Source of the DNA: Aurantiochytrium sp. KH105
Lineage: Eukaryota > Sar > Bigyra > Thraustochytrida > Thraustochytriidae
Assembly (NCBI GenBank): GCA_003116975.1
Contig: BGKB01000120.1
Span: forward strand, 1 to 64,000
DNA: 64,000 nt
Direction of reading: 5' to 3'
The position numbers and the translations under genes are program-made. Below the pieces are notes generated by a model. The model saw only the letters and a program-made list of their open reading frames with translations, did not search any database and was not told where the DNA came from. This document shows, in pieces, positions 26,127-61,190 of the stretch (position 1 is the first letter of the stretch; each line of letters starts with the position of its first letter).

Positions 26127-27176
26127 ATGAACCCCGCCACCGTGCAACTAGAGTCCGTCCTCTGGTCCAGCAACCACGGCCTCGTCGCCCTCGCGAACGC
26201 AGCAGACGCAGAGGGGGCCAAGGCCTCCGAGGCAGCGCGCGGCGCAAGCGAGGCAGACAGCGCGGCCGCCGCCGTCTGCGGCTTCGAGGACGTACTTCGG
26301 CCCGACCTCTCCGTGCCCGACCTCGCCGGCGCCGCCGTGAGCAAGGGCAACTTCGTGCTCAAGCTCCAAAGGCGCAATGCGAGCGAATCTGGCATTCACG
26401 TCGTCGGTGACGAGAACGTTCACCAGGCGGAGAACGAAATTGATATCATGAGGCATCTCGACGCCGAGCCAAGCAAGTGCAAGTTCATCGTCGAGTTCCT
26501 CTTTGGAACCTGCACACCCCAAGTCTCTTACATCGGCATGGAGCACTGCCGCGGGGGTGACCTCTTCTCCTTGTTGGCCTCATGTGACTCACTGCTCATC
26601 GGCGACGTCATTCACTACGCTGTCGAGATCGCCATCGGGATTCAGTACCTCCACGATCGCAACATCATTCATGCCGACCTCAAGCCAGAGAATATTGGCC
26701 TCACAGCCTCAGGACATGTGCGTCTCCTCGACTTCGGACTGTCTGTCCTTCTTGACGAAGAGCGCGATCGCAATCCTGAGAACGGCCGCCTCGAGGTCGT
26801 AACCAGTTCCGGGACCATCTTCTATTCCGCCCCAGAGATCCTTCGGCGAGAATGCCACGGCATCGAAACCGACTGGTGGAGTTACGGTGTCCTCATTTTT
26901 GAAATGCTTTTTGGATCCTGGCCCTGGGATGGGGTCGATGCGCAAGAGACTTGCAATCTTATCTGCTGCACGCCACTGCCTTCGCCACAGGACCTTGGAG
27001 CAGAGGCTCTCGATGCTGACTGGGACCTCATTGAAAAGCTTTTGGTAAAACCACGGTCTGAACGACTCGGGTACAACAAGGGTCTTGAAGATATTAAGAC
27101 CCACGCGCTTTTTGCGTCTGTCGATTGGGATCTCGCTGCACGGGAGGGCTACTTGGCTCCATTCTCCCTGCAGTAG
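26127..27176 (+). CDS. AGC-like serine/threonine protein kinase with non-RD catalytic loop
   Basis: 349 residues from ATG 26127. Kinase motifs: FVLKL with Lys79 (VAIK position), Glu102 in QAENEIDIMRHL (helix C), MEHCRGGDLFSLL, catalytic loop IHADLKPENI (Asp184, Lys186, Asn189), LDFGLS (Asp202), GTIFYSAPEIL, and TDWWSYGVLIFEMLFG. The ending SERLGYNKGLEDIKTHALF with a following VDW is the AGC-group signature. Two oddities: no glycine-rich GxGxxG loop can be seen ahead of Lys79, and the HRD arginine is Ala (HAD). Activation by loop phosphorylation through that Arg is therefore not expected. An unseen upstream exon could supply the glycine loop. Substrates unknown. Confidence 0.85.
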   Translation: MNPATVQLESVLWSSNHGLVALANAADAEGAKASEAARGASEADSAAAAVCGFEDVLRPDLSVPDLAGAAVSKGNFVLKLQRRNASESGIHVVGDENVHQAENEIDIMRHLDAEPSKCKFIVEFLFGTCTPQVSYIGMEHCRGGDLFSLLASCDSLLIGDVIHYAVEIAIGIQYLHDRNIIHADLKPENIGLTASGHVRLLDFGLSVLLDEERDRNPENGRLEVVTSSGTIFYSAPEILRRECHGIETDWWSYGVLIFEMLFGSWPWDGVDAQETCNLICCTPLPSPQDLGAEALDADWDLIEKLLVKPRSERLGYNKGLEDIKTHALFASVDWDLAAREGYLAPFSLQ

Positions 27177-41005: not shown

Positions 41006-41312
41006 NNNNNNNNNNNNNNNNNNNNNNNNNNNNNNNNNNNNNNNNNNNNNNNNNNNNNNNNNNNNNNNNNNNNNNNNNNNNNNNNNNNNNNNNNNNNNNN
41101 NNNNNNNNNNNNNNNNNNNNNNNNNNNNNNNNNNNNNNNNNNNNNNNNNNNNNNNNNNNNNNNNNNNNNNNNNNNNNNNNNNNNNNNNNNNNNNNNNNNN
41201 NNNNNNNNNNNNNNNNNNNNNNNNNNNNNNNNNNNNNNNNNNNNNNNNNNNNNNNNNNNNNNNNNNNNNNNNNNNNNNNNNNNNNNNNNNNNNNNNNNNN
41301 NNNNNNNNNNNN
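41006..41312. other. Assembly gap (307 N)
   Basis: A run of undetermined bases. It falls within or just before the 5' part of the following gene and next to the 178-bp repeats, a likely reason for the failed assembly. The true gap length may differ from 307. Confidence 1.
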
Positions 41313-43418: not shown

Positions 43419-46400
43419 ATGACACCCTGGCTGAGGGCAGGCGCGCTCGGCGCGGCGGCGGCGACATCGACGCAGCCGTCGCCGTCGCCGCCCGCGCGCC
43501 CTGAGCTGCCTGGACCCAGAGCAGGCCAGAAGGAGGCCCGCCGCGATGCCATCGAGAAAGCTCAGAAGCTGGCTTCCATTGCCACGGATATCTTTGGCGG
43601 GGCTGCGCAAGATATCAACCGTGAGGAGCTCGACGGCGGCGATCTGGCGCCAATTGTGGCAGAGGTCGTAGCCTCTTTGCAAAACACAGAGCCCATGCAT
43701 GTACTCTGTCTTGCAACGGCGTGCCAGCCTGGCTTTACCGGGCACGGCGCAGCTGTCATCCTCGTCAAGGCCCTTCGCCACGATATGGATGTCTTTGTCC
43801 TCGGAACTCTCCAGGGACTCGTGATTGCGCGCAAGCCGACTTTGCTCGCGTCTCTGGCTGTCCCCCTTGCTCGCGTTGTACTCGAGGACGGAAACAGGCC
43901 TCTAAGGCTGGAAAGACGCCAAATACTCGAACTCCTGCTGTTGGGCTCCGTTTCGTCCCCGGGAGTCATGCTTGAGCTGGGGTCCGCAATTGAATACGCC
44001 TCCCCAGAAGTCGCAGAACTACTGGCTGGCGCGCACTGGGGGCTCGCTCATGCATGTGCGGCACCGCGCACGCTCGAGTCTCCGTTCGGCGATGCGGCGG
44101 CGCGCGAAGCAGCCATGCGCAGCAATTCCTGGGTGCATAACGGTGCCGCTCGGCCCTCTCTGCTCCCCGGGAGGCCCGGCAACGACCACTTTGCCTTTTC
44201 TTACCCGTACTTTTCCTGGCCAGAGGGTCGCTGGGTTCTCGAGCCTAGCCCTGGCCAAGGCGACAGCCCCGCCTTTACACTTCACGCTCAAAATTGCGCT
44301 TTCGGAACAAGCGTGGAGGGTTGTCTCCTCGAGCAAGATGCTGATGGCCCCTTGCTTGTCAAAGGGACTGTGGCTCGCACGAGTGGACGCAATTACGCTG
44401 CCGTCTACGCCTCGGTCCGCGACCGTGCGAATGCTTCGCAAAGGAACCCTTACCCGCTCATGATCAGCCACTGGTCGGGGCGCGAACTTCGTGGCTGGAG
44501 AGCACGGGGCGCGGATCGCTTGATCATGCTCGGTGTCCCGCGTCTCATTCAGGCGAGCCTCGACGTCGAAGCCATAAACGACACGGGCGCTGAGCGAATG
44601 CTACGAACCGTTGCCCTTGCCGCAGGCCAGACCTTGCAACTAAGCAAAGGAGAGCTCTCCGGAGGAGATGGTTGGGCCGTACAGACATGGATTTACCGAA
44701 AGAATGAGCGCCCCGCGTCCGAGTGGATCGAAATTATGCGCATCGGTCGCCTCAGTCTCCGCATGCAAGAATCTCCGGCCGGCCTTGAGCTCGCCATCGT
44801 GGAAACAAAGTCGCAGAGCGTGGTTGTTAGTGCTCAAGGAAGTCTCCCCGACGCGAAGTGGCTGCAAATCGTTTGCTTCGGAAAGACCTCCGATGGTGTC
44901 GGTTTTGCTGTCAATGGGGACCACATCATGACCAACTGCAGAGATTTTGATCTCGGCTCACAAGCGCTAGAGGCTCCCGAGCTGTGCTCTTCGCACCTTT
45001 TGTACGGCTTTTTCAAGGTTTGGAAACGTGCCATTGATGTAGCAACCATCTCGCGCGAATATCAGCGTGGATTTTCTTGCGCCGTAAACGCCGAAGAGGT
45101 TGGCTCACTCCTCGCTTTTTGCCCGCTCCAGGGCGTTGGCCCAACTGCCTTGTACGACGTGTCTGGTCATGATCGCCACCTTGTCGTGGTGACACGCTCG
45201 TCGTCTCAAGCATCGTCCGTTCTCGCAACAGCCGAAGTATCAAGCCGCGAGACCGACACTTCTTTGCCACCGACGTCGCCTTTGTACGGCTTGCATTCTC
45301 AAGGCGAGCTCTTTTCCATTGGTCCTGTTCTGGATACTCGCGGCGGACGACAAGCTGGAGTCAGCCTTAGTCCTGGAGCCTCACTTTGGACACAACGTCG
45401 CCTTCCCATCGCGGACGGTGCCGAAGCTGAGTTCACCATGTGCATCAAACCAGGAACCCAGGCCTGTCTTGTCTTGCATGCCGGTTCGTACTGGGATGTT
45501 CTCAAGTACACGTATCAGCGGCACGGAGCTTTCGACCGCCAGGTGCGACTGTTCCTCTCGGTTGACACGGTCTCCGGGCATGGTTTCCAGTACAGAATTT
45601 CCGTGCAAGTGGCCCAGCCCCATATTCAAACCCTTGTGCAGCTTCCCTGCGTGGGGTTCACTCCAAGTGCAGAAGTAGGCAAGTCCAGGGATGGAATCGA
45701 AATTCGTGTGGGCATTGCGTACTCAAACACTCATGAGCTTTCAATCCTGGTCAACAACAATGTACTCGCCACCCTGGCCGCCGATCTCCCCTCCCTCCTC
45801 CGAATGACAATCTTGGACGGCGTCTTTCTCGGCGTCATGACCAATACGCAGCCTCTCGCCGTGCTCAGGATCCAAGCACGGGCAAAAGAAAGTGCTGGCG
45901 CCGAGAGCCGCCGCCTTCCGTGGGAGATTTCCGGAAAATCTTCCTTGCTCGCCGCTGCGGATGCTCCAGGCGGGACGAACGAGTCATCGGCCTCTGGTAG
46001 CGGGACTGCCCAGACCGCAGGGGACTACTCGCCGCTCATCGACCTTTCGAATGCAGCAAGTTCCGCGGCCGCAAGTGACACCCCACAGCAATGGCAATGC
46101 CCAGTTTGCACGTGCTTAAATGCTCCGAGCGCCACGATGTGTGAGGCATGCAATAGTCCCAACCCCAATTCTGGTTCAACATCCACTGCATTGGTCCCAA
46201 TCGCGTCACCAGGTCCGAGCTCTGGTTCGAGTGGTGCATCCTCGCAATGGGCGTGCTTGCAATGCACATTTCGCAATGCGGCTTCTAACTTAGTCTGCGA
46301 AATGTGTCAACAGCCTCGGCCAGCGAGCGCAGCGCCTAGTGACCCGGGTCCCAGCGCAGCGAGCGGCGTTGAGGAAGCTTGGAATTGCTCCATATGCACA

Positions 46401-49400
46401 TTGCGCAACCCGGCCTCAAATGTGGCGTGCTCCGCATGCAGTTCGCCACGTCCCAGCGTACCAGCCTCTGGCCCAGGCACCACCTCAGGAGCCGCAGGTG
46501 CTGAAGCCGGGGCAGGTGGATCGGCAACGACAACGGCGACGGCGACGGCCGCAGCAGCTTCAGCGCCGGGGCAAAGTGCTGCGTCGACTAAAGTCGAAGA
46601 CGGGAAACTTCGCGACGCGATCAAGGCGCGCTGCGAAAATCTAGAGGCTGCTCTCCAAGCGGAAATGGTGCGAATGGCCTACTCTCTCAGCGACGAGGGA
46701 AGCGGAGACGACTCGGGGCTTCCGATGTTGGACAGTATTGGAAACTGGGACACCACATTGGGTATTCTGGATGTTGTCGCAGCGGCTGGGGACGAGGATC
46801 GAATCGTTTACGAATTGGATGGAGAGTATGGAGACAATCAGGGCCGCTTTCAGCTTCTCGCGCATGTCGACCCAACATCGGTGACTTGGCGCATCGCGGG
46901 AGCTTGGCTTGCGCGAGGCGTGGGTCGAAATGGGCCACACTATGTGGACTTGCGGCTCGACGATGCAGGAGAGCGCTTATTCGGAACCTGGGCTTTTGGG
47001 GACGCTGCTTCCGGGAATTGGGACGCCAAGCTCGAGGCAGATGCGGAACAGTGCCGCGGACTCGTCCAACGTCTGCGGGAAACAACAATTGTAACATCTC
47101 TGACGGAAATGGCGCTGCGCGATGCGCGCGAGGCTCAAATCAAGGTCACCGACGATGAAAAAAACTTTCCCTTTTCGCCTTTCGCGTCGGGGCTCCGTAA
47201 CATGGAGCAGGGACTTTACAACGTGTGTTATCAGAACTCGCTTCTGCAGGCGCTTTTTGCCACGAGTGCGCTGCGACGTGCGCTGTTGTTCCCCCCGGAG
47301 GGGACAATGATGGACAATGCTCTTATTCACGCTCTCCGCGAGCTGTTTGCACGACTTCTCGTATCACAAACACCTGTATTTGCTTCCAGAGGGCTGCAAA
47401 AGGCCCTCTCTCAGGACTGGCGTACGGGCGAGCAAATGGATGTCTCTGACTTTCATAACTATGTCTTTGCTAAGCTCGAAGACGCTTTCCCCCAAGGTGC
47501 TCTACTCGATGAACTTTTCGGGTACAGCGTTGCCCAGATTCGTCGATGCGCTTCGTGTGGGACGGCCAAAGTTATGGATGAGGCCGGGCGCGGCCTTGCT
47601 GTGACCTTGCCCGGTCAGTTCATGCCCATCACAGACATTACTGCGGTAACTTGCGCAACCAAGTCGAGACTTCACGAAGTTCGAGTTCCCGACGGCTTTG
47701 AGCTTATTCGTGCCAATGTTAATGCAGACAAGGACGATCACCCGTGCGTTTTTCTATGCGTTCGTCGCGATCCGGACGCCGAGCCCGTTACCGAGCTGCT
47801 CGTTCGGGTCGTCCCAGGTACAGACCCGGTTCCGGGGACTCCGAATGGGTACAGAAGCGTAGGCGTCAATCTGAACCCTGGGCCCGAACCTCCGGCGCCG
47901 ACCCCAGCAGAGGCTGCCGCGAGAGCAGCTTCTGGTGCTCCCGCGCCTTCGCCCGCATCAAACGGAAACAAACCAGATCAGGTGTATCTGTTTTTCCAGT
48001 GCGGCGCACGCGGTTCCCCCATCACGGACCTCAACGTTCTTGTTGGCGCGGAAAATATTGCTTCGCCCCCGGAGGACGCGCGCGTCATCTCCACTGACCT
48101 GAACCCAAGCTGGCAGGCTCGAGCCGTCGTGACTGGAGTGCCAGTCAACGCAGGTGCGACAAGCGCATCATCAAGTGCAGGGGCAGGAGCAACGGTTCCA
48201 GTTGCGCAAACTGCGGCTTCGGGTTCGACCTCTGGCGCTGGGCCTGCAACGACACCTGTCAAGCTTTGCTACATGCGAGGCATGCCCGTGACAGATGTAT
48301 TGGTCTCGACGGCGCCGCTTTTGAACCAGGCAGCAGAGTACCAGGTACTGGACACGCCTCTGAACCTTGCCTTGGATCCTTCGCAAAGCGCGTCGAGTGA
48401 TGTCTTTCTTTGGTTTAGCGATTCGCGCGTTTTTGTCAAGCCAATCACAGACCTCGTACTCGTTGAGCGCGCGCAAGAGGCTCAATTCAGAGAGAATGGT
48501 TTTGAGTCATGCGGTACATTCGTTTTCCGCGGCGGACGCACGCTAATGAAGAGACGTGGTGAGGGGACTCCTATCACACAAGTCTCCATCTTTCGCGCCC
48601 CTCGCGTGGTGCCTCCGTATCGCTTCAACGAAGTCCTAGACCTCTACGAGCGCCGCCTCACGACGGATCATAGAGGTAACGAACGCGACGGCACAAGCGC
48701 CTCTTCCTCCTCCTCTTCATCATCATCATCGTCTTCCTCGTCGCCATCCTCCTCGGCGGCGACGGTAACAGCAACAACCCCGGAGGCTGGTGACTTGCCA
48801 AGCGCATCGGACGAGGTCGCTCTGGCAGCGCAAGTGAAAGAGGCGCCAGGAGGCGCTCGTGTTAAAGCTGACCCCATTCGTGCTCTCTTTGATCGGAATT
48901 GGTTGCCGCAAATCTCGTCAAACAAAGCAAAGAATGGATCGGGCTCGTCGGGGTCCGGGTCCGCAAGCTCGAACCAAAACATGGACCCTCCGCCCGGTCT
49001 TGCCATTGGTCGCGGCAAGACCTTGCAGCTACGAGGTCTCAATGAACCTGTACAGGCTGGGTTTTTCCATGGTAGCTTTTCGAGGCTAGGCCCTGAAGGT
49101 CAAGCAGGAACTTTACACGGCACAGCATTCTTCCGGCCCGAGTCCCTCCGCTGGTCCTTTCTTGGCTATGCATGCCAGGAAAACAACAATGTCAATTTCG
49201 TTGAGTTTAGCTTTCAGGACCGCGGCGGTGGAAATTGGGGCCTTTCCGGCTTTGCAATCAATTCAGCCAGTTGCTCGACTTCGATGGCCGCTGCCCAGAT
49301 CAACGTTGATGGAAAGCGCGTGAGCTCAACGGCCCAGGGCGCGCAAGGCCCGATTGTGGACCTGTGCGTCCTCCGAGATGGCGAGGCCATCCCTTCGGGC

Positions 49401-51242
49401 TTTGAAGTCATTTCAAGCTTTGAGAACGCCCAACGTTGCAATCTTCGCGATGGCGATAGCACGATGTCCATATTGCTTGCTGCGCGCCATAGCGCGGACC
49501 CGGGTGAGGACCCGATCGCCAAAGTCGCTCTTTTCCTTGCCGACCTGGAAGAGCTTCCAAACGGCTTTCAACCTGTGACACAGACGCCTTCAGGCGCAAA
49601 TGCCGACTTGAACCATGGAACAGGCGGCGTGGCCATGTACTTGGCCTATCGAAGGTGCTCAAGCGCTCAGACGACACGCGCAGTTCATCGACTTGCACTG
49701 CAGTGGCGGAACCTTTCGGAGAAGGTGCCTCCTGGATTTTCTGCCATTGATCGAACGGTCTCAAATCAAATGGAGGCGAGCCTCACGATGACGGGGACCC
49801 ACAATATCTTTCTTTGCGCGGATGAAAGAGATTCCTCGGCAGTAATCCACCCTCATGTGCTCAACGGGACGTACGAGACCTCATGGGGCGATTTGCACCT
49901 CTATGCCGTGTCGACGATGCGGGAAGCAACGCTTGTCACGGGCTCCTTTAGTGCTGTTTCTGCCCTAAGAAACACCAGCCCAAGCGAAGGGCTTTCGTTG
50001 GTGCTCTTGCCACTCGAGGGAGACGAAGGCTTGGAAATGGGGCAGTCCATGCTGCCTTCGTGGACCCGTGAGGCGGCGAGGCGGAGGCGTCCTGCAGGGC
50101 GAAAGGCTCCACGCGCAAACTGGATCATGTGCGGATCGTGGACCAAAACGGATGCCGTCGGCACAGACGCCCTGCGGAGAGCCCCGACGATCTGGCGTGG
50201 GCGGACGGATGCATCGCACCGCGAAGTTTTGGCTTCGTGGTCGTGGGCGAAAACTGCTGGCATTGTCCAGCTTGTGCAAGACACGTATGTTCAGCTTGCT
50301 ATTGCAAAGGACCCGAGCGAGTTGTGGCGTGGGGGGCGCAAACTTTTCTCGGACAGGCGCGCAGACCATAGCATTCAGAGTTTAGTGCATCATTACTTTA
50401 GCTCGGCGGTGCTCGATGGATCTGACATGCTCATGTGCGACAATGAAGGCGTCAAGCGCATGCACGAGCAATCGACGCTGATGGCCAGCCCGCCCGAACA
50501 CCTAATTCTGACGGTGAAACGCATGGGCTTCGACTACGAGCGAGGGCGGGCCATTAAACACCTCCAGAGCACCCGTTTCGACCCTGTGCTGGTCCTTCCC
50601 TGCGGCGCCACTGCAGACGCTGCAGCGGAGGACATCAAGGATGTTCCGTATGGTCTGTACGCCGTTCTCGTCCACACTGGCGCAAATGCTAACTCAGGCC
50701 ACTATTTTGCGTACACGCGCGATGCTTCCGACGAGAGCATCAATGAGCGTGACAGCCCAACGTCGCCTTGGCGTCTGCTCAACGATGCCAAGGTGCTACC
50801 CGTCGATTGGGCGATGATGACAAACCAGATTGAACAGTCTGAGTCGAATACAGTGTACCTGCTCTTTTACCGACAGCTACAGGCTGCTGGGGCTGAAAAG
50901 GCTTCCGATGTGGCGGGCCATCATCCTGCCAAGAAGGCCCGAACTCGCGAGCAGGGCGACCGCGATGAGACGCGCGAGCAACATCAAGCAAATCCGCGGG
51001 CGATGGAACTCGAAAGGTCATCTACGTCGTCTTCATCCTCATCTTCAGCGTCGGGACAGCATAAACAGGCTCCGGGCTTGTCACCGACGCACTTTCAGAA
51101 TGTTGTTTCGGTGCTACGACAGCAGCCGCTGCCCGAGCTTCTCACGAGTGTCATGCACGAGAATGTCGTCTCTCACCAGCAAGAGCTTGAACGCCGAACT
51201 TCGCCGTATTACGAGGCCTGTCTGCAAGCGATGATGGAATGA
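43419..51242 (+). CDS. Giant ubiquitin-specific protease with RanBP2 zinc fingers and MABP-like insertion
   Basis: 2607 residues from ATG 43419. Two LamG/concanavalin-like beta regions are likely (about 417-547 and 667-770). Three RanBP2-type zinc fingers follow (about 888-1015): WQCPVCTCLNAPSATMCEAC, WACLQCTFRNAASNLVCEMC, WNCSICTLRNPASNVACSAC. Such fingers often bind ubiquitin or RNA. The catalytic USP domain starts with GLYNVCYQNSLLQALF (Cys1270). Its His box comes over 1150 residues later: VLVHTGANANSGHYFAYT (His2428), then WRLLNDAKV (Asn2455 as third catalytic residue) and VYLLFYRQ. The insertion holds about four repeats with the PITDL/PVTDV signature of MABP beta-prism domains (about 1430-1730), a Ser-rich linker and two or more beta-rich modules. 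I infer an active cysteine deubiquitinase recruited to membranes or ubiquitin chains by its extra domains; substrate unknown. Confidence 0.9.
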   Translation: MTPWLRAGALGAAAATSTQPSPSPPARPELPGPRAGQKEARRDAIEKAQKLASIATDIFGGAAQDINREELDGGDLAPIVAEVVASLQNTEPMHVLCLATACQPGFTGHGAAVILVKALRHDMDVFVLGTLQGLVIARKPTLLASLAVPLARVVLEDGNRPLRLERRQILELLLLGSVSSPGVMLELGSAIEYASPEVAELLAGAHWGLAHACAAPRTLESPFGDAAAREAAMRSNSWVHNGAARPSLLPGRPGNDHFAFSYPYFSWPEGRWVLEPSPGQGDSPAFTLHAQNCAFGTSVEGCLLEQDADGPLLVKGTVARTSGRNYAAVYASVRDRANASQRNPYPLMISHWSGRELRGWRARGADRLIMLGVPRLIQASLDVEAINDTGAERMLRTVALAAGQTLQLSKGELSGGDGWAVQTWIYRKNERPASEWIEIMRIGRLSLRMQESPAGLELAIVETKSQSVVVSAQGSLPDAKWLQIVCFGKTSDGVGFAVNGDHIMTNCRDFDLGSQALEAPELCSSHLLYGFFKVWKRAIDVATISREYQRGFSCAVNAEEVGSLLAFCPLQGVGPTALYDVSGHDRHLVVVTRSSSQASSVLATAEVSSRETDTSLPPTSPLYGLHSQGELFSIGPVLDTRGGRQAGVSLSPGASLWTQRRLPIADGAEAEFTMCIKPGTQACLVLHAGSYWDVLKYTYQRHGAFDRQVRLFLSVDTVSGHGFQYRISVQVAQPHIQTLVQLPCVGFTPSAEVGKSRDGIEIRVGIAYSNTHELSILVNNNVLATLAADLPSLLRMTILDGVFLGVMTNTQPLAVLRIQARAKESAGAESRRLPWEISGKSSLLAAADAPGGTNESSASGSGTAQTAGDYSPLIDLSNAASSAAASDTPQQWQCPVCTCLNAPSATMCEACNSPNPNSGSTSTALVPIASPGPSSGSSGASSQWACLQCTFRNAASNLVCEMCQQPRPASAAPSDPGPSAASGVEEAWNCSICTLRNPASNVACSACSSPRPSVPASGPGTTSGAAGAEAGAGGSATTTATATAAAASAPGQSAASTKVEDGKLRDAIKARCENLEAALQAEMVRMAYSLSDEGSGDDSGLPMLDSIGNWDTTLGILDVVAAAGDEDRIVYELDGEYGDNQGRFQLLAHVDPTSVTWRIAGAWLARGVGRNGPHYVDLRLDDAGERLFGTWAFGDAASGNWDAKLEADAEQCRGLVQRLRETTIVTSLTEMALRDAREAQIKVTDDEKNFPFSPFASGLRNMEQGLYNVCYQNSLLQALFATSALRRALLFPPEGTMMDNALIHALRELFARLLVSQTPVFASRGLQKALSQDWRTGEQMDVSDFHNYVFAKLEDAFPQGALLDELFGYSVAQIRRCASCGTAKVMDEAGRGLAVTLPGQFMPITDITAVTCATKSRLHEVRVPDGFELIRANVNADKDDHPCVFLCVRRDPDAEPVTELLVRVVPGTDPVPGTPNGYRSVGVNLNPGPEPPAPTPAEAAARAASGAPAPSPASNGNKPDQVYLFFQCGARGSPITDLNVLVGAENIASPPEDARVISTDLNPSWQARAVVTGVPVNAGATSASSSAGAGATVPVAQTAASGSTSGAGPATTPVKLCYMRGMPVTDVLVSTAPLLNQAAEYQVLDTPLNLALDPSQSASSDVFLWFSDSRVFVKPITDLVLVERAQEAQFRENGFESCGTFVFRGGRTLMKRRGEGTPITQVSIFRAPRVVPPYRFNEVLDLYERRLTTDHRGNERDGTSASSSSSSSSSSSSSSPSSSAATVTATTPEAGDLPSASDEVALAAQVKEAPGGARVKADPIRALFDRNWLPQISSNKAKNGSGSSGSGSASSNQNMDPPPGLAIGRGKTLQLRGLNEPVQAGFFHGSFSRLGPEGQAGTLHGTAFFRPESLRWSFLGYACQENNNVNFVEFSFQDRGGGNWGLSGFAINSASCSTSMAAAQINVDGKRVSSTAQGAQGPIVDLCVLRDGEAIPSGFEVISSFENAQRCNLRDGDSTMSILLAARHSADPGEDPIAKVALFLADLEELPNGFQPVTQTPSGANADLNHGTGGVAMYLAYRRCSSAQTTRAVHRLALQWRNLSEKVPPGFSAIDRTVSNQMEASLTMTGTHNIFLCADERDSSAVIHPHVLNGTYETSWGDLHLYAVSTMREATLVTGSFSAVSALRNTSPSEGLSLVLLPLEGDEGLEMGQSMLPSWTREAARRRRPAGRKAPRANWIMCGSWTKTDAVGTDALRRAPTIWRGRTDASHREVLASWSWAKTAGIVQLVQDTYVQLAIAKDPSELWRGGRKLFSDRRADHSIQSLVHHYFSSAVLDGSDMLMCDNEGVKRMHEQSTLMASPPEHLILTVKRMGFDYERGRAIKHLQSTRFDPVLVLPCGATADAAAEDIKDVPYGLYAVLVHTGANANSGHYFAYTRDASDESINERDSPTSPWRLLNDAKVLPVDWAMMTNQIEQSESNTVYLLFYRQLQAAGAEKASDVAGHHPAKKARTREQGDRDETREQHQANPRAMELERSSTSSSSSSSASGQHKQAPGLSPTHFQNVVSVLRQQPLPELLTSVMHENVVSHQQELERRTSPYYEACLQAMME
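48702..48756. repeat. Serine-codon run (TCC/TCA/TCG) in the ubiquitin protease gene
   Basis: About 17 consecutive Ser codons with mixed codon use, which suggests an older or selected tract compared with the pure TCC run of the SET gene. Confidence 0.8.
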
Positions 51243-56854: not shown

Positions 56855-58410
56855 TCTCCCCGCCCTCGTCTCCAAGTCAAGCCCGCCTCGCGCGCCACAG
56901 CCCACGCGGCAGCGCGAGGCCGCCGGCCGTCTCGACTTGCTCCTCTCCTGCTGCCGCTGCTGCCGCTCGTCCTCCCCTCCGTCCCCGTCGCCCTCGCCCT
57001 CGCCGTCTGCGTTGGCGTTGGCGTTGGCGTTGGCGGGCTGGGTCCGAGCGTCGCCCGGGCCCCTTAAGAAGGCCGCGCAGCACGTGCACGTGCTCGTGCA
57101 CGTGCGTGCACCGCTTTCGCGCCGCGTGACGCCGCCGCAAGCGCCAGCGCCCGCCCGCGCTCCTCGCCCAGGCGCGCTCCGAGCTCCTCGCGCCGCGCAG
57201 GGCTTCGGGGACTGCGCTCGCGCTCGCGCGACGGCCGGCTCGCCGGCGCCCGCGCGCGCTGCGGTATCGACGTCGCGCTGCTCGCACCGCGCAAAGAGCA
57301 GCAGCGCACACATGCGAGTCACAGTCGCGCGTAAGTAAGTTAGGAGTCGAGGCGGCACGTGCCCAGGGCGGGCGGAGCGCGTGCACGAGCAGGTGCAGGA
57401 GCAGGTGCAGAGCAGGCGCTCGCGACAGCGACGCTGGTGAGCGAGGCGTGACGTGAGACGAGCCGGAGCTTGCTCGCTTGCGTGGCTTGCTTGCGTGGCT
57501 TCACATCAGGCAGGGTTTGGCATTAGGCAGAGGGGATCGGTTATCTTGGAACAAGCAAGGTGTGATGCGCGTTGGCAAGGAGGCACGCTCACAAGACGGA
57601 CGACCTTGGACCATGGGGAATGCAGTCTCTGATGAAAGGCGGAAATGGTCTCTTTGGGGGTGGGGGGCGCATCGCTGCGCGGTAAAAGTCGCTGGTTCCG
57701 GGTGCCATTCGGGCTGAGCGCAGCACAGGCTCAGGGGCAGTTCCTCGTCGCGGTCGTTGTTCGAGGGTGAGTGAACCGGGTGAAGTCGTTCATGTGTGGC
57801 AAGTAAATTTATTCTTCACATCTGCGCCACCCTATCTCTTGTCACTCGTCCGGGGCGCGCTCGTGAGACACGACCGGATGCCAAAGAAAGAAAGAAATTA
57901 AGAAAGAAAGAAAGGGATAATACGCGACGCCAAATGAATGATCTTCATTCTTGGCGGCTAGCCTGTCCAGAATAGTTTGTAACTTTTAAAGCCTACCTAT
58001 ACTTTCTTTCAAGAAGCGCTTAAAGATCCTTTCAAGAGGTTCTCGCAGGCAAACAACGAAGCATGAGTAAAGTCAATCAAGCAATTGTTCTCGCGAGGTT
58101 GAACAGCGAGGGTCAGTACCACCAAGATGACGTGCTTTTCGGTTCGTTCATGATCATTCACCCTCAAAGGGCTCCGTTTCTTCAGATGTTATCAACCAAA
58201 CTTCGTTCTGCGCCGTTGCAGACCATCAGCATTAAGCTTTTGGCAATCTCTGTAATAGGTATACGCAAGGTGAATGGAGGGGGGGGGATGCATGAGGTCC
58301 CTCCAGCTTGCTGTGAAGCCTTTATTTGCCTTTGACTCTTCTCGCGATGATCCTTTTTTTTTTTTTTTAAACCAAGGATCTGAGCAAGGATCCCGCGATC
58401 TCAACCGCGA
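56855..58410. other. Divergent intergenic region between ankyrin-SAM (-) and B56-kinase (+) genes
   Basis: The left part (to about 57450) is very GC-rich and could be an N-terminal extension or leader of the ankyrin gene. The right part is AT-richer with an AAAG run at about 57884-57918 and a poly-T run near 58353-58369, shortly before the ATG of the fusion gene. No separate gene seen. Confidence 0.5.
57884..57918. repeat. (AAAG)n microsatellite
   Basis: Imperfect AAAG array with one TTAAG interruption in the divergent intergenic region. Confidence 0.8.
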
Positions 58411-61113
58411 ATGAATAAACTGCAAACGTACGTACGAACGAACCCCTCCGGCCGGCAGCGAGACAGCCGCAGGAAGATGGCGGCCGAGGATCGCGAGGCT
58501 GCGCCGGTGCTGGCCGCGCTGGCCAGAGGAGGCGCCGGAACTGCTGCGGCCGCGGAAACACTGCGCGAGATTGCGGACGCTGGCGAGCTCCGCGACTTCG
58601 AGTGGGACGAAGACGTCACGCTCCGTGCGAACCTGCGCGCTGCGCTCAAGACGTGGTGGCAGCCCTCGGCCGCGACGCGAGAAGGAGCCACGGCAGCGTG
58701 CGCAGCCCTCGACGCCTGCGTCCTGTCGCTTCTGCACGGAACGCCAGAGTTCAACGAGGACGCACGCAGGGACGTCTTCGACTGGACCATCGGAAACCTC
58801 GCGCTCGAAGCCTTGCAAGTGCGCAGCAGTGCCGCCTTGCATGATGCCATTTGCGTGAGCTACGCACTCGACGAATCGGCCATCGGCCGCACAAAGCTAC
58901 GCGGTGCCATGGGCGGATTTCTGAAATTGTGTGCGCATGATCCGCCGGATTCGCGCGAAGGTCTCGCCGCAGTGGCGGGCCTATTGCACACGGTAACAAC
59001 AATCGTGCAAGGCATGGTTTCGCCGCTCAGTAAAGCAGACCTTGGTCTATTGACAAACATTGTGCTTCCGCTGCACGGCATTCCCGGCAAAGTTTCCCCA
59101 AGCGAGTCTGCACTTGGCGAAATCCATCGTCCTCTCACGGCATGTGTCATGGCTTTTGCGCGTTTGGCGTCACCGGAGGACAAGGTAAACATCATCGATC
59201 TCGTCATCAAGGGTTTGACCGACTCCTGGCCGACCTCTTGGGAGGGCAATTCTCCCAAAGAGGTTCTTCTCCTCCATGGACTCGAAACCTTGTTGCGCGC
59301 CGACCTCGCCGTTGCACCATCTGCCCCGGACTCGGGTCCGCTTGTAGGGCGCAAGCTTGGCGAGGCTGTAGCCAGCGACAACAGTACCGTGTGCGAGCGC
59401 GCGCTCATGTATTGGAAGCACCCAGAGACGGTCGAGAGCCTTTATACCATGGGCGCACCTGCGGTGCGCTCCGTGGCTCGCTCACTCTTTGCAAATGCGC
59501 TGACGCACTGGAACCACACTGTTGCTCGCCTTGCCCCGCTTGTGCTATCTAGCCTTTACGACTTTGACCGTGACCTTGTTACTGAAATCGCCATTGAAAT
59601 GCTCGGCGCTGATGCCGATGTCGAGGCGTACATTGAAGGTTTTCTCGAGGCGGCCTCCAAGACGCAGGAAGATGACGACAAGAACGCAAAAGGGGAGGAC
59701 GGGGATGAGAGCGAGGATGAAGAGAGAAGTGCTCAAGTTGAAGACGAGGATATTCAAAGCAGCGGTCGTCGGCAGCGGCGCAAGGTCCGAGCAACGGAGA
59801 AGGCGAGCATCCCAGCCAAACGCGACGTGTCCTTTATGAACATGATTGTAGGACGCGAGCTGGGTCACGGTTCGTTTTCGAAAGTCTTTCACGCGCAACA
59901 AGCAATCAAGAACAAACCCTCGAGGGAATGGCCAGAGTTTGCTATCAAGCGCATGAGTGAGCGACATCGTGATATTGCTCTTCGCGAAGCAGAAATGATG
60001 GATGCCATCCAGCACCCGCTGTGCACGCGCCTCGTGGGACTGTACGAGAGTGCAGGAAACATCAACCTCGTCATGGAATACGCAGCCTCTGGTGACTTAC
60101 ATTCTGCGCTGGCCTCGATTGGTACGCTGGACGCGGACACGACGCGTTTTGTCGCAGGCGAAGTCGCCTCGGCACTGCGAGCCGTGCATGGCGCTGGTCT
60201 CATTTTTGGCGACCTTAAGCCGGAGAACGTCCTCATTCATGCCAACGGTCATGTCAAGCTTGGCGACTTTGGTGCAACGCGTCCACTTGAGCAAATTGCA
60301 AGCGCCACCATGCCGCTGGAAGGCACGCTCGCGTATCTCGCCCCGGAGCTCTTTCGGCGCCGTGATGGGCCAAGTGCCGCCGAGCCGGACACATTGACGA
60401 TCCCAGAAGCAATCGACTGGTGGGCTTATGGCTGTGTGGTGTACCAGATGTTGGCGGGCCAGCCCCCGCTCTGGGTCGAGGATGAGCGAGACGTTGTCAA
60501 GAGCCTCGTTTCATTTGAGATTGAAAGGTATCCCGATGGTTTCCCCGAGGATGCACAGGCTCTCGTGGACGCTCTGCTCGTGCATGACCCAGCAGAGCGT
60601 CTCTGTTCCTCCAGCGGTGCCCAGGAGCTCGAGTCGAATGCATTCTTTGCGCCGCTCGATGTTCCCTTTGATGAATTGTACGAGCAGCCGGCGCCGAAAT
60701 TTGCCGTGGGCAAAGTGAAACAAGAAAATGGTCCTTGGACCCAACGCTCGTATTCGATGATGATCGCGCCTCTTCCCGAAGCGTACGCCGAGGCATCGGG
60801 GGCGTCCTCCTCCATTGTGAATGAAATTGCAGAAACGGACAAGGAGCGTCGGTCTGTATGGGGCTCGGCGCAGGGTTTGCAACAGCTCCGCCGTCCACAA
60901 GGTCTGCCCCCGGTGGGTGAGGGTTCGAGACGCAAGTCTGCAACCAGCGCGACGGCAGCCACGGCAGCGCAATTCATGAGTGTCATGCCCGGCATGATGG
61001 GACGCGGGCGAGGCGCACGCCGTGGAGGCCGTGGAGGTGGTCGCGGGGGCAGCAGCGCAGGTGGAAGCGGAGGCAAATTTATGGTCAAGGGCCTTGATCT
61101 CACAGCCGGTTGA
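58411..61113 (+). CDS. PP2A B56-like regulatory domain fused to a serine/threonine protein kinase
   Basis: 900 residues from ATG 58411; a second candidate start is Met23 (MAAEDRE). Residues about 130-395 resemble the HEAT repeats of PP2A B56 (B') subunits, notably SPKEVLLLHGLETLL, STVCERALMYWKHPE and ANALTHWNHTVARLAPLVLS, which parallel the B56 blocks SPKEVMFLNELEEIL, VAERALYYWNNE and SKTHWNKTIHGL. An acidic linker and a basic patch (415-465) lead to a complete kinase domain (478-745): GRELGHGSFSKV, Lys513 in FAIKRM, helix-C Glu526/528, IFGDLKPENVL (Asp601, Lys603, Asn606), LGDFGA (Asp619), and GTLAYLAPELF. The HRD motif reads FGD, so it is a non-RD kinase, broadly PDK1/AGC-like. The C-terminus is an RGG tail (863-880). 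Such a protein could bring a kinase to PP2A substrates (inference). Confidence 0.85.
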   Translation: MNKLQTYVRTNPSGRQRDSRRKMAAEDREAAPVLAALARGGAGTAAAAETLREIADAGELRDFEWDEDVTLRANLRAALKTWWQPSAATREGATAACAALDACVLSLLHGTPEFNEDARRDVFDWTIGNLALEALQVRSSAALHDAICVSYALDESAIGRTKLRGAMGGFLKLCAHDPPDSREGLAAVAGLLHTVTTIVQGMVSPLSKADLGLLTNIVLPLHGIPGKVSPSESALGEIHRPLTACVMAFARLASPEDKVNIIDLVIKGLTDSWPTSWEGNSPKEVLLLHGLETLLRADLAVAPSAPDSGPLVGRKLGEAVASDNSTVCERALMYWKHPETVESLYTMGAPAVRSVARSLFANALTHWNHTVARLAPLVLSSLYDFDRDLVTEIAIEMLGADADVEAYIEGFLEAASKTQEDDDKNAKGEDGDESEDEERSAQVEDEDIQSSGRRQRRKVRATEKASIPAKRDVSFMNMIVGRELGHGSFSKVFHAQQAIKNKPSREWPEFAIKRMSERHRDIALREAEMMDAIQHPLCTRLVGLYESAGNINLVMEYAASGDLHSALASIGTLDADTTRFVAGEVASALRAVHGAGLIFGDLKPENVLIHANGHVKLGDFGATRPLEQIASATMPLEGTLAYLAPELFRRRDGPSAAEPDTLTIPEAIDWWAYGCVVYQMLAGQPPLWVEDERDVVKSLVSFEIERYPDGFPEDAQALVDALLVHDPAERLCSSSGAQELESNAFFAPLDVPFDELYEQPAPKFAVGKVKQENGPWTQRSYSMMIAPLPEAYAEASGASSSIVNEIAETDKERRSVWGSAQGLQQLRRPQGLPPVGEGSRRKSATSATAATAAQFMSVMPGMMGRGRGARRGGRGGGRGGSSAGGSGGKFMVKGLDLTAG

Positions 61114-61155
61114 AAAGTAAAATCACGGACGGAATCAAGCACGCACGCATGCACG

Positions 61156-61190
61156 CTAGATAGCTAGCTAGCTAGCTAGTTAGCTAGCAG
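61156..61190. repeat. (TAGC)n microsatellite in a convergent 3' region
   Basis: About eight TAGC units with small interruptions between the B56-kinase stop and the UNG stop. TAGC repeats are self-complementary in register (GCTA/TAGC) and could fold back. Confidence 0.85.

What the first reader, a model, noticed from the sequence alone, without database searches (positions are those of the whole stretch)
58411..61113. PP2A B56-like regulatory domain and protein kinase in one polypeptide
The N-terminal half carries several B56 (B') signature blocks in the right order. The C-terminal half is a complete protein kinase with all catalytic residues, and an RGG tail follows. I know of no described fusion of a PP2A targeting subunit with a kinase. 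It would place opposing activities on the same substrates, or use the B56 fold as a kinase targeting domain.
Basis: partly seen in the sequence, partly recalled or inferred. Interest (0 to 1): 0.88.

Follow-up and report, generated by a model that had tools for sequence, protein, structure and literature searches.

The report
B56-like solenoid fused to AGC-type kinase
One uninterrupted gene of an unidentified, apparently eukaryotic organism joins a piece related to the B56 targeting subunit of the phosphatase PP2A to a protein kinase, a pairing I found no report of; several parts of B56 that normally grip phosphatase substrates look changed, so the B56 part more likely aims or controls the attached kinase than serves the phosphatase.

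Summary
The reading frame at 58411-61113 (+, 900 aa) is real and unbroken. Residues 185-396 match Pfam B56 (E=3.3e-19, profile positions 194-387 of 413) and human B56gamma (67 of 203 aligned residues identical; 0 of 2000 shuffles reach the score). Residues 1-186 show no B56 similarity by sequence; only a low-confidence fold model, whose two best PDB matches are B56 structures, suggests that they are the rest of the solenoid. Residues 480-733 are a kinase (E=1.9e-44) nearest PDK1 and other AGC kinases, with the phosphotransfer residues but FGD instead of HRD (non-RD). An acidic/basic linker separates the halves; an RG-rich tail follows.

The fusion is supported at DNA level. Opposing activities on shared substrates is weaker: in the alignable part of the LxxIxE pocket 1 of 7 contact residues is identical (K240S, H243D, I227T among the changes), and the half that should carry the loop facing the PP2A catalytic subunit cannot be aligned. 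Best reading: a B56-derived solenoid used as a kinase targeting or regulatory domain. No relative was found, but the collections searched are of prokaryotes, viruses and phages, so rarity is untested. No transcript evidence.

The parts
58411..61113 (+). B56-kinase fusion ORF, 900 aa plus stop; alternative start at 58477 (Met23)
58477..58968 (+). residues 23-186, N-terminal half; no B56 similarity by sequence, low-confidence helical model
   Evidence: no sequence match; fold
58969..59598 (+). residues 187-396, B56 (PF01603) C-terminal half
59251..59265 (+). SPKEV block (residues 281-285) identical to B56gamma 298-302
59641..59820 (+). linker, residues 411-470, 18 D/E of 60, with a basic stretch
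59764..59793 (+). basic stretch GRRQRRKVRA (residues 452-461), NLS-like by eye only
59848..60609 (+). protein kinase domain, residues 480-733, AGC/PDK1-like
60205..60213 (+). FGD in place of HRD (residues 599-601), non-RD catalytic loop
60691..61110 (+). C-terminal tail, residues 761-900; no Pfam family above its cut-off
60997..61050 (+). RG/RGG box, residues 863-880

Best explanation
A gene fusion put a B56-derived HEAT-like solenoid in front of a non-RD AGC-type kinase. The solenoid has probably given up canonical LxxIxE substrate capture and acts as the kinase's own docking or regulatory scaffold; the kinase, lacking the HRD arginine and the usual activation-loop phosphosite, is probably active without activation-loop phosphorylation and is directed by the solenoid, the linker and the RG tail. 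Shown: both domains in one open frame; change of the alignable pocket residues; FGD motif. Inferred: expression as one protein, kinase activity, the targeting role.
For: Both domains above Pfam cut-offs in one stop-free frame; coding-like linker. B56gamma pocket residues named in PMC4930772 (passages), in the confidently aligned part: E226H, I227T, S230T, I231I, A236V, K240S, H243D, 1 of 7 identical, the same in all 5 scoring schemes and in the MAFFT alignment. Acidic-patch E310 (PMC7108865, passages) is T293 and E316 is A or V in 5 of 5 schemes. Blocks LPLH, WP, SPKEV, ERAL-YW and THWN are kept. Kinase with K513, E526, D601, N606, D619 but FGD; PDK1 Ser241 aligns to Pro635 (alignment; residue number recalled).
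Against: S230T and A236V are mild (A236 contacts by its main chain), and in B56gamma K240A and H243A weaken BubR1 binding (Kd about 28 and 80 umol/L) without abolishing it. E276 of the acidic patch is kept as E256 (5 of 5 schemes), and E344, counterpart of the B56delta patient residue E420, as E329. In the poorly aligned stretch S173 and T184 are identical in 4 of 5 schemes. H187 and R197, whose mutation abolishes binding, lie in that stretch too; by eye H144 and R160/R164 could be their counterparts. Loss of LxxIxE capture would not by itself stop assembly with PP2A A and C. No relatives, so conservation of the fusion is untested.
Confidence: 0.5

Rival explanations
1. Kinase-phosphatase hub: the B56 part still joins PP2A A and C, so that one complex holds a kinase and a phosphatase, either on a shared substrate or with PP2A resetting the kinase in cis.
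For: Clear B56 homology over the C-terminal repeats; E256 and E329 match B56gamma E276 and E344; RRKS and RRS sites in the tail fit the R-R/K-S/T consensus of PKA (PMC8467178, passages). Precedents: kinase plus PP2C domains in one oomycete protein (PMC3019232; PMC10925823, passages).
Against: The N-terminal half, where the acidic loop with the C-facing glutamate (B56gamma 121-131) and the A contact K202 would lie, has no recognisable similarity (893 of 2000 shuffles score as high). B56delta W207R, D251H and D251Y lost A and C in pulldown (PMC11352527, figure legend); their counterparts lie in that half. K240 and H243 are replaced.
Confidence: 0.28
2. Two transcripts or two proteins: the long frame is genomic coincidence, and a B56-like protein and a kinase are made separately through an intron or an internal promoter.
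For: No RNA evidence was available; Met476 and Met478 lie just before the kinase domain. No promoter or terminator scan was run.
Against: No stop in 900 codons; the linker has the codon-position GC of the two domains, unlike the flat and lower GC of the two flanks sampled, and no donor site of the patterns searched in 59601-59860.
Confidence: 0.12
3. Assembly chimera joining two unrelated genes at the linker.
For: The window does contain a run of N (41006-41312).
Against: That run is about 18 kb away; no long repeat at the junction (two overlapping 15-mers shared with 641-642 only; no direct repeat of 20 nt or more); the frame is kept across the junction.
Confidence: 0.05
4. The N-terminal domain is a generic alpha-solenoid that only resembles B56.
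For: Residues 1-186 fail the sequence tests made; Foldseek also returns many ARM/HEAT proteins at E-values only a few-fold weaker.
Against: Pfam B56 E=3.3e-19; the 14 PDB sequences at E<=0.01 are B56 subunits, one of them a chimera holding B56gamma; Z=21 against shuffles.
Confidence: 0.05

Closest known systems
PP2A B56/B' (PPP2R5) regulatory subunits, e.g. human B56gamma, PDB 2npp
   Same: C-terminal half: 67 of 203 aligned residues identical, blocks in the same order
   Different: N-terminal half unrecognisable by sequence; most alignable LxxIxE-pocket residues replaced; a kinase domain is attached
PDK1 and other AGC kinases (S6K, RSK, PKA)
   Same: Best PDB matches; phosphotransfer residues in order
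   Different: FGD for HRD; six residues fewer before the alpha-C helix than PDK1, and K115E, R131A, T148L, Q150E (PIF-pocket roles and numbering recalled; alignment); no PH domain and no F..F/Y hydrophobic motif found after residue 730
Oomycete proteins with kinase plus PP2C (and cNMP-binding) domains
   Same: Kinase and phosphatase-related parts in one polypeptide (PMC3019232, section 8 and passages; PMC10925823, passages)
   Different: There a phosphatase catalytic domain, and in two P. infestans cases an inactive kinase; here only a PP2A targeting-subunit-like domain. The accessory-domain table of PMC3019232 (30 rows by my count) lists no B56, though one kinase with HEAT repeats
Oomycete CDK-cyclin fusions
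   Same: A kinase fused to what is normally a separate regulatory protein (PMC3019232, passages)
   Different: The partner is a known kinase subunit, not a phosphatase subunit; all four may be inactive

Membership tests
PP2A B56 (PF01603) | Pfam score above the curated cut-off | tested here: met
   69.6 bits in the whole protein, 71.7 in residues 1-410; cut-off 25
PP2A B56 (PF01603) | Similarity along the whole domain | tested here: not met
   Profile 194-387 of 413 only; residues 1-190 alone give no B56 hit at E<=1; shuffle test 893 of 2000
PP2A B56 (PF01603) | B56 HEAT-like fold | tested here: inconclusive
   Single-sequence model pLDDT 55.8, pTM 0.52; top PDB matches 6vro and 5k6s, E 6.3e-4 and 8.5e-4, TM 0.33 by query length
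PP2A B56 (PF01603) | LxxIxE pocket, alignable part (E226, I227, S230, I231, A236, K240, H243) | tested here: not met
   1 of 7 identical; two of the six changes are mild
PP2A B56 (PF01603) | LxxIxE pocket, N-terminal part (S173, D180, T184, H187, R188, Y190, R197, R201) | tested here: inconclusive
   Not reliably alignable; S173 and T184 identical in 4 of 5 schemes, no other of the eight identical in any scheme
PP2A B56 (PF01603) | Acidic patch E276, E310, D313, E316 | tested here: inconclusive
   Over 5 schemes: E276 is E256 in 5, E310 is T293 in 5, D313 is R296 in 3 and D298 in 2, E316 is A or V in 5
PP2A B56 (PF01603) | Contacts to PP2A A and C (acidic loop 121-131, K202) | tested here: inconclusive
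   These lie in the unalignable half
PP2A B56 (PF01603) | Assembles with PP2A A and C | not testable with these tools
   needs biochemistry
Protein kinase (PF00069) | Family profile and phosphotransfer residues K, E, D, N, D | tested here: met
   E=1.9e-44; K513, E526, D601, N606, D619
Protein kinase (PF00069) | HRD motif | tested here: not met
   FGD; only the Asp is kept
AGC group / PDK1 | Nearest relatives are AGC kinases | tested here: met
   The 60 listed of 856 PDB sequences are AGC kinases by name; PDK1 126.7 bits, S6K 124.5. Only solved structures were compared, no tree was built
AGC group / PDK1 | PIF pocket, hydrophobic motif or PH domain | tested here: not met
   Pocket positions replaced or missing (numbering recalled); no F..F/Y motif after residue 730; no PH hit at E<=1

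The most novel reading that the evidence does not exclude
A stable lineage-specific kinase-phosphatase hub in which a B56 subunit that still assembles with PP2A A and C carries its own constitutively competent AGC kinase, so that one complex writes and erases phosphates at the same site or the phosphatase is steered by a kinase in cis.
Probability: 0.2. Interest if true: 0.88.

Novelty: new variant of a known kind. Interest (0 to 1): 0.6.

Why it matters
B56 subunits are known as PP2A's targeting subunits. A B56-derived domain working in cis with a kinase would show that the phosphatase's targeting fold can be recruited to a kinase, or that nature has built a fused writer-eraser; either is directly testable by pulldown and kinase assay.

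Tried and rejected
Relatives: viral contigs with residues 151-410, with the kinase and with alignment A1; genome contigs with residues 151-410 and A1; phages by tblastn with residues 185-410. None gave a relative at E<=1e-3. The kinase was searched in viral contigs only. These are collections of prokaryotes, viruses and phages, so this says nothing about eukaryotes. No whole genome is held for the window, so other B56 genes of the organism could not be counted. NCBIfam gave 16 families, all with scores below their cut-offs, mostly bacterial kinase models. The kinase fold model was useless (pLDDT 34.3) and was not searched. Rfam at gathering thresholds and ARAGORN found nothing in the window. 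I tried to read the fate of H187, R197 and the C-facing acidic loop; the alignment there is not better than chance, so I make no claim on them. I considered an upstream exon with a missing first repeat: the three + frames of 57500-58410 show no obvious one by eye; no profile search of them was made. Passages of PMC8256288 were seen and not used.

Full report
Observation. The window looks eukaryotic in gene content: other ORFs match UDG, RabGAP-TBC, DHH, ankyrin repeats, UCH and RanBP zinc-finger families, and no whole genome is held for it. The ORF at 58411-61113 is open for 900 codons. GC by codon position is alike in residues 186-400, the linker and the kinase (third position 0.61 in each, second position 0.40-0.47); it differs at the N-terminus (0.70, 0.55, 0.77) and is nearly flat in the tail (0.65, 0.62, 0.59), while the two flanks sampled are flat at about 0.50 and 0.43. 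The ATG at 58477 (Met23, context aagATGg) is a plausible alternative start; I judge this by eye.

B56 part. Pfam B56 covers residues 185-396 (E=3.3e-19). The 14 PDB sequences at E<=0.01 are B56 subunits, one of them a chimera that contains B56gamma. Against human B56gamma, residues 187-410 give 67 identities in 203 aligned positions (30% in the MAFFT alignment of residues 185-410) and a score that none of 2000 shuffles reached. Residues 23-186 are no better than shuffles (893 of 2000; best ungapped block 113 of 200). A single-sequence model of residues 22-420 is all-helical (pLDDT 55.8, pTM 0.52); its two best PDB matches of 1090 at E<=10 are B56 structures (343 and 336 columns, gaps included; probability 1.00), a third B56 is rank 6, and ARM/HEAT proteins fill much of the rest of the 50 rows shown. 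The best E-values are 6e-4 and 8.5e-4, TM is 0.33, and Foldseek also uses the amino acids, so this is a hint rather than proof that the whole B56 solenoid is present.

What is kept and what is lost. From published contacts (PMC4930772 passages; PMC7108865 passages) I listed 15 B56gamma residues of the LxxIxE pocket and its phosphate contacts. In the well-aligned part, 1 of 7 is identical; K240 and H243, which hold the motif's glutamate, are Ser207 and Asp210. Against this, K240A and H243A in B56gamma weaken but do not abolish binding, and S230T and A236V are mild. The other eight fall where the alignment is unreliable; there S173 and T184 are identical in 4 of 5 scoring schemes and the rest in none. 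Of the acidic patch, E310 and E316 are replaced, E276 is kept, D313 depends on the scheme. E344, the counterpart of the B56delta patient residue E420 (offset of 76; E420K named), is kept as E329. The acidic loop with the C-facing glutamate and the A contact K202 lie in the unalignable half. Three of the four regions that PMC11352527 calls highly conserved but outside the regulation interface (B56delta 295-316, 341-353, 373-389; passages) correspond to B56gamma 219-240, 265-277 and 297-313 and overlap blocks kept here, which fits retention of the fold rather than of the interface. So the sequence argues against ordinary LxxIxE capture and is silent on PP2A assembly.

Kinase part. Residues 480-733 match Pkinase (E=1.9e-44). 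The 60 rows listed of 856 PDB sequences at E<=1e-10 are AGC kinases by name, PDK1 first by a small margin. K513, E526, D601, K603, N606 and D619 are present; the HRD motif is FGD. In the alignment the PDK1 activation-loop serine aligns to Pro635, six residues are missing before the alpha-C helix, and PIF-pocket residues differ (PDK1 numbering and roles recalled). I infer an active, non-RD kinase that does not need the usual activation-loop phosphate. The tail has an RG box (863-880) and two RR(x)S sites.

Explanation. Most likely (0.5) the B56-derived solenoid targets or restrains the kinase without classical PP2A-B56 substrate capture. The hub model (0.28) remains open. Separate transcripts (0.12) and assembly error (0.05) are unlikely on sequence grounds but were not excluded by experiment.

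Known or new. Ten full-text searches showed no B56-kinase fusion in the titles and abstract openings listed: searches (8 of 8 papers listed; 20 of 857; 12 of 57; 15 of 203; 15 of 7,124; 5 of 5; 10 of 11; 0 found; no paper holds both Pfam accessions; 15 of 29), 62 (15 of 93); some searches were aimed at B56 structure rather than at fusions. The P. infestans kinome lists no B56 among kinase accessory domains (section 8 read) but reports kinase-PP2C and CDK-cyclin combinations, so the general habit is known while this pairing is, to my searches, not. Subscription papers and eukaryote protein databases were out of reach.

Noticed in passing
26127-27173 (+): A second AGC-like kinase in the window (best PDB match ribosomal protein S6 kinase alpha-6, E=7.1e-42; 31% identical to this kinase over 207 columns) with HAD for HRD, also non-RD; its Pfam match starts at profile position 42, so the N lobe is diverged or incomplete.
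   Followed up: partly
43419-51242 (+): 2607-aa ubiquitin-hydrolase (UCH) ORF with a RanBP-type zinc-finger match.
   Followed up: no
41006-41312: Run of N, probably a scaffold gap, that several listed ORFs read through as X.
   Followed up: no
61150-61189: Imperfect AGCTAGCT-type inverted repeat (20-nt arms, 80% complementary) about 37 nt after the stop codon.
   Followed up: no
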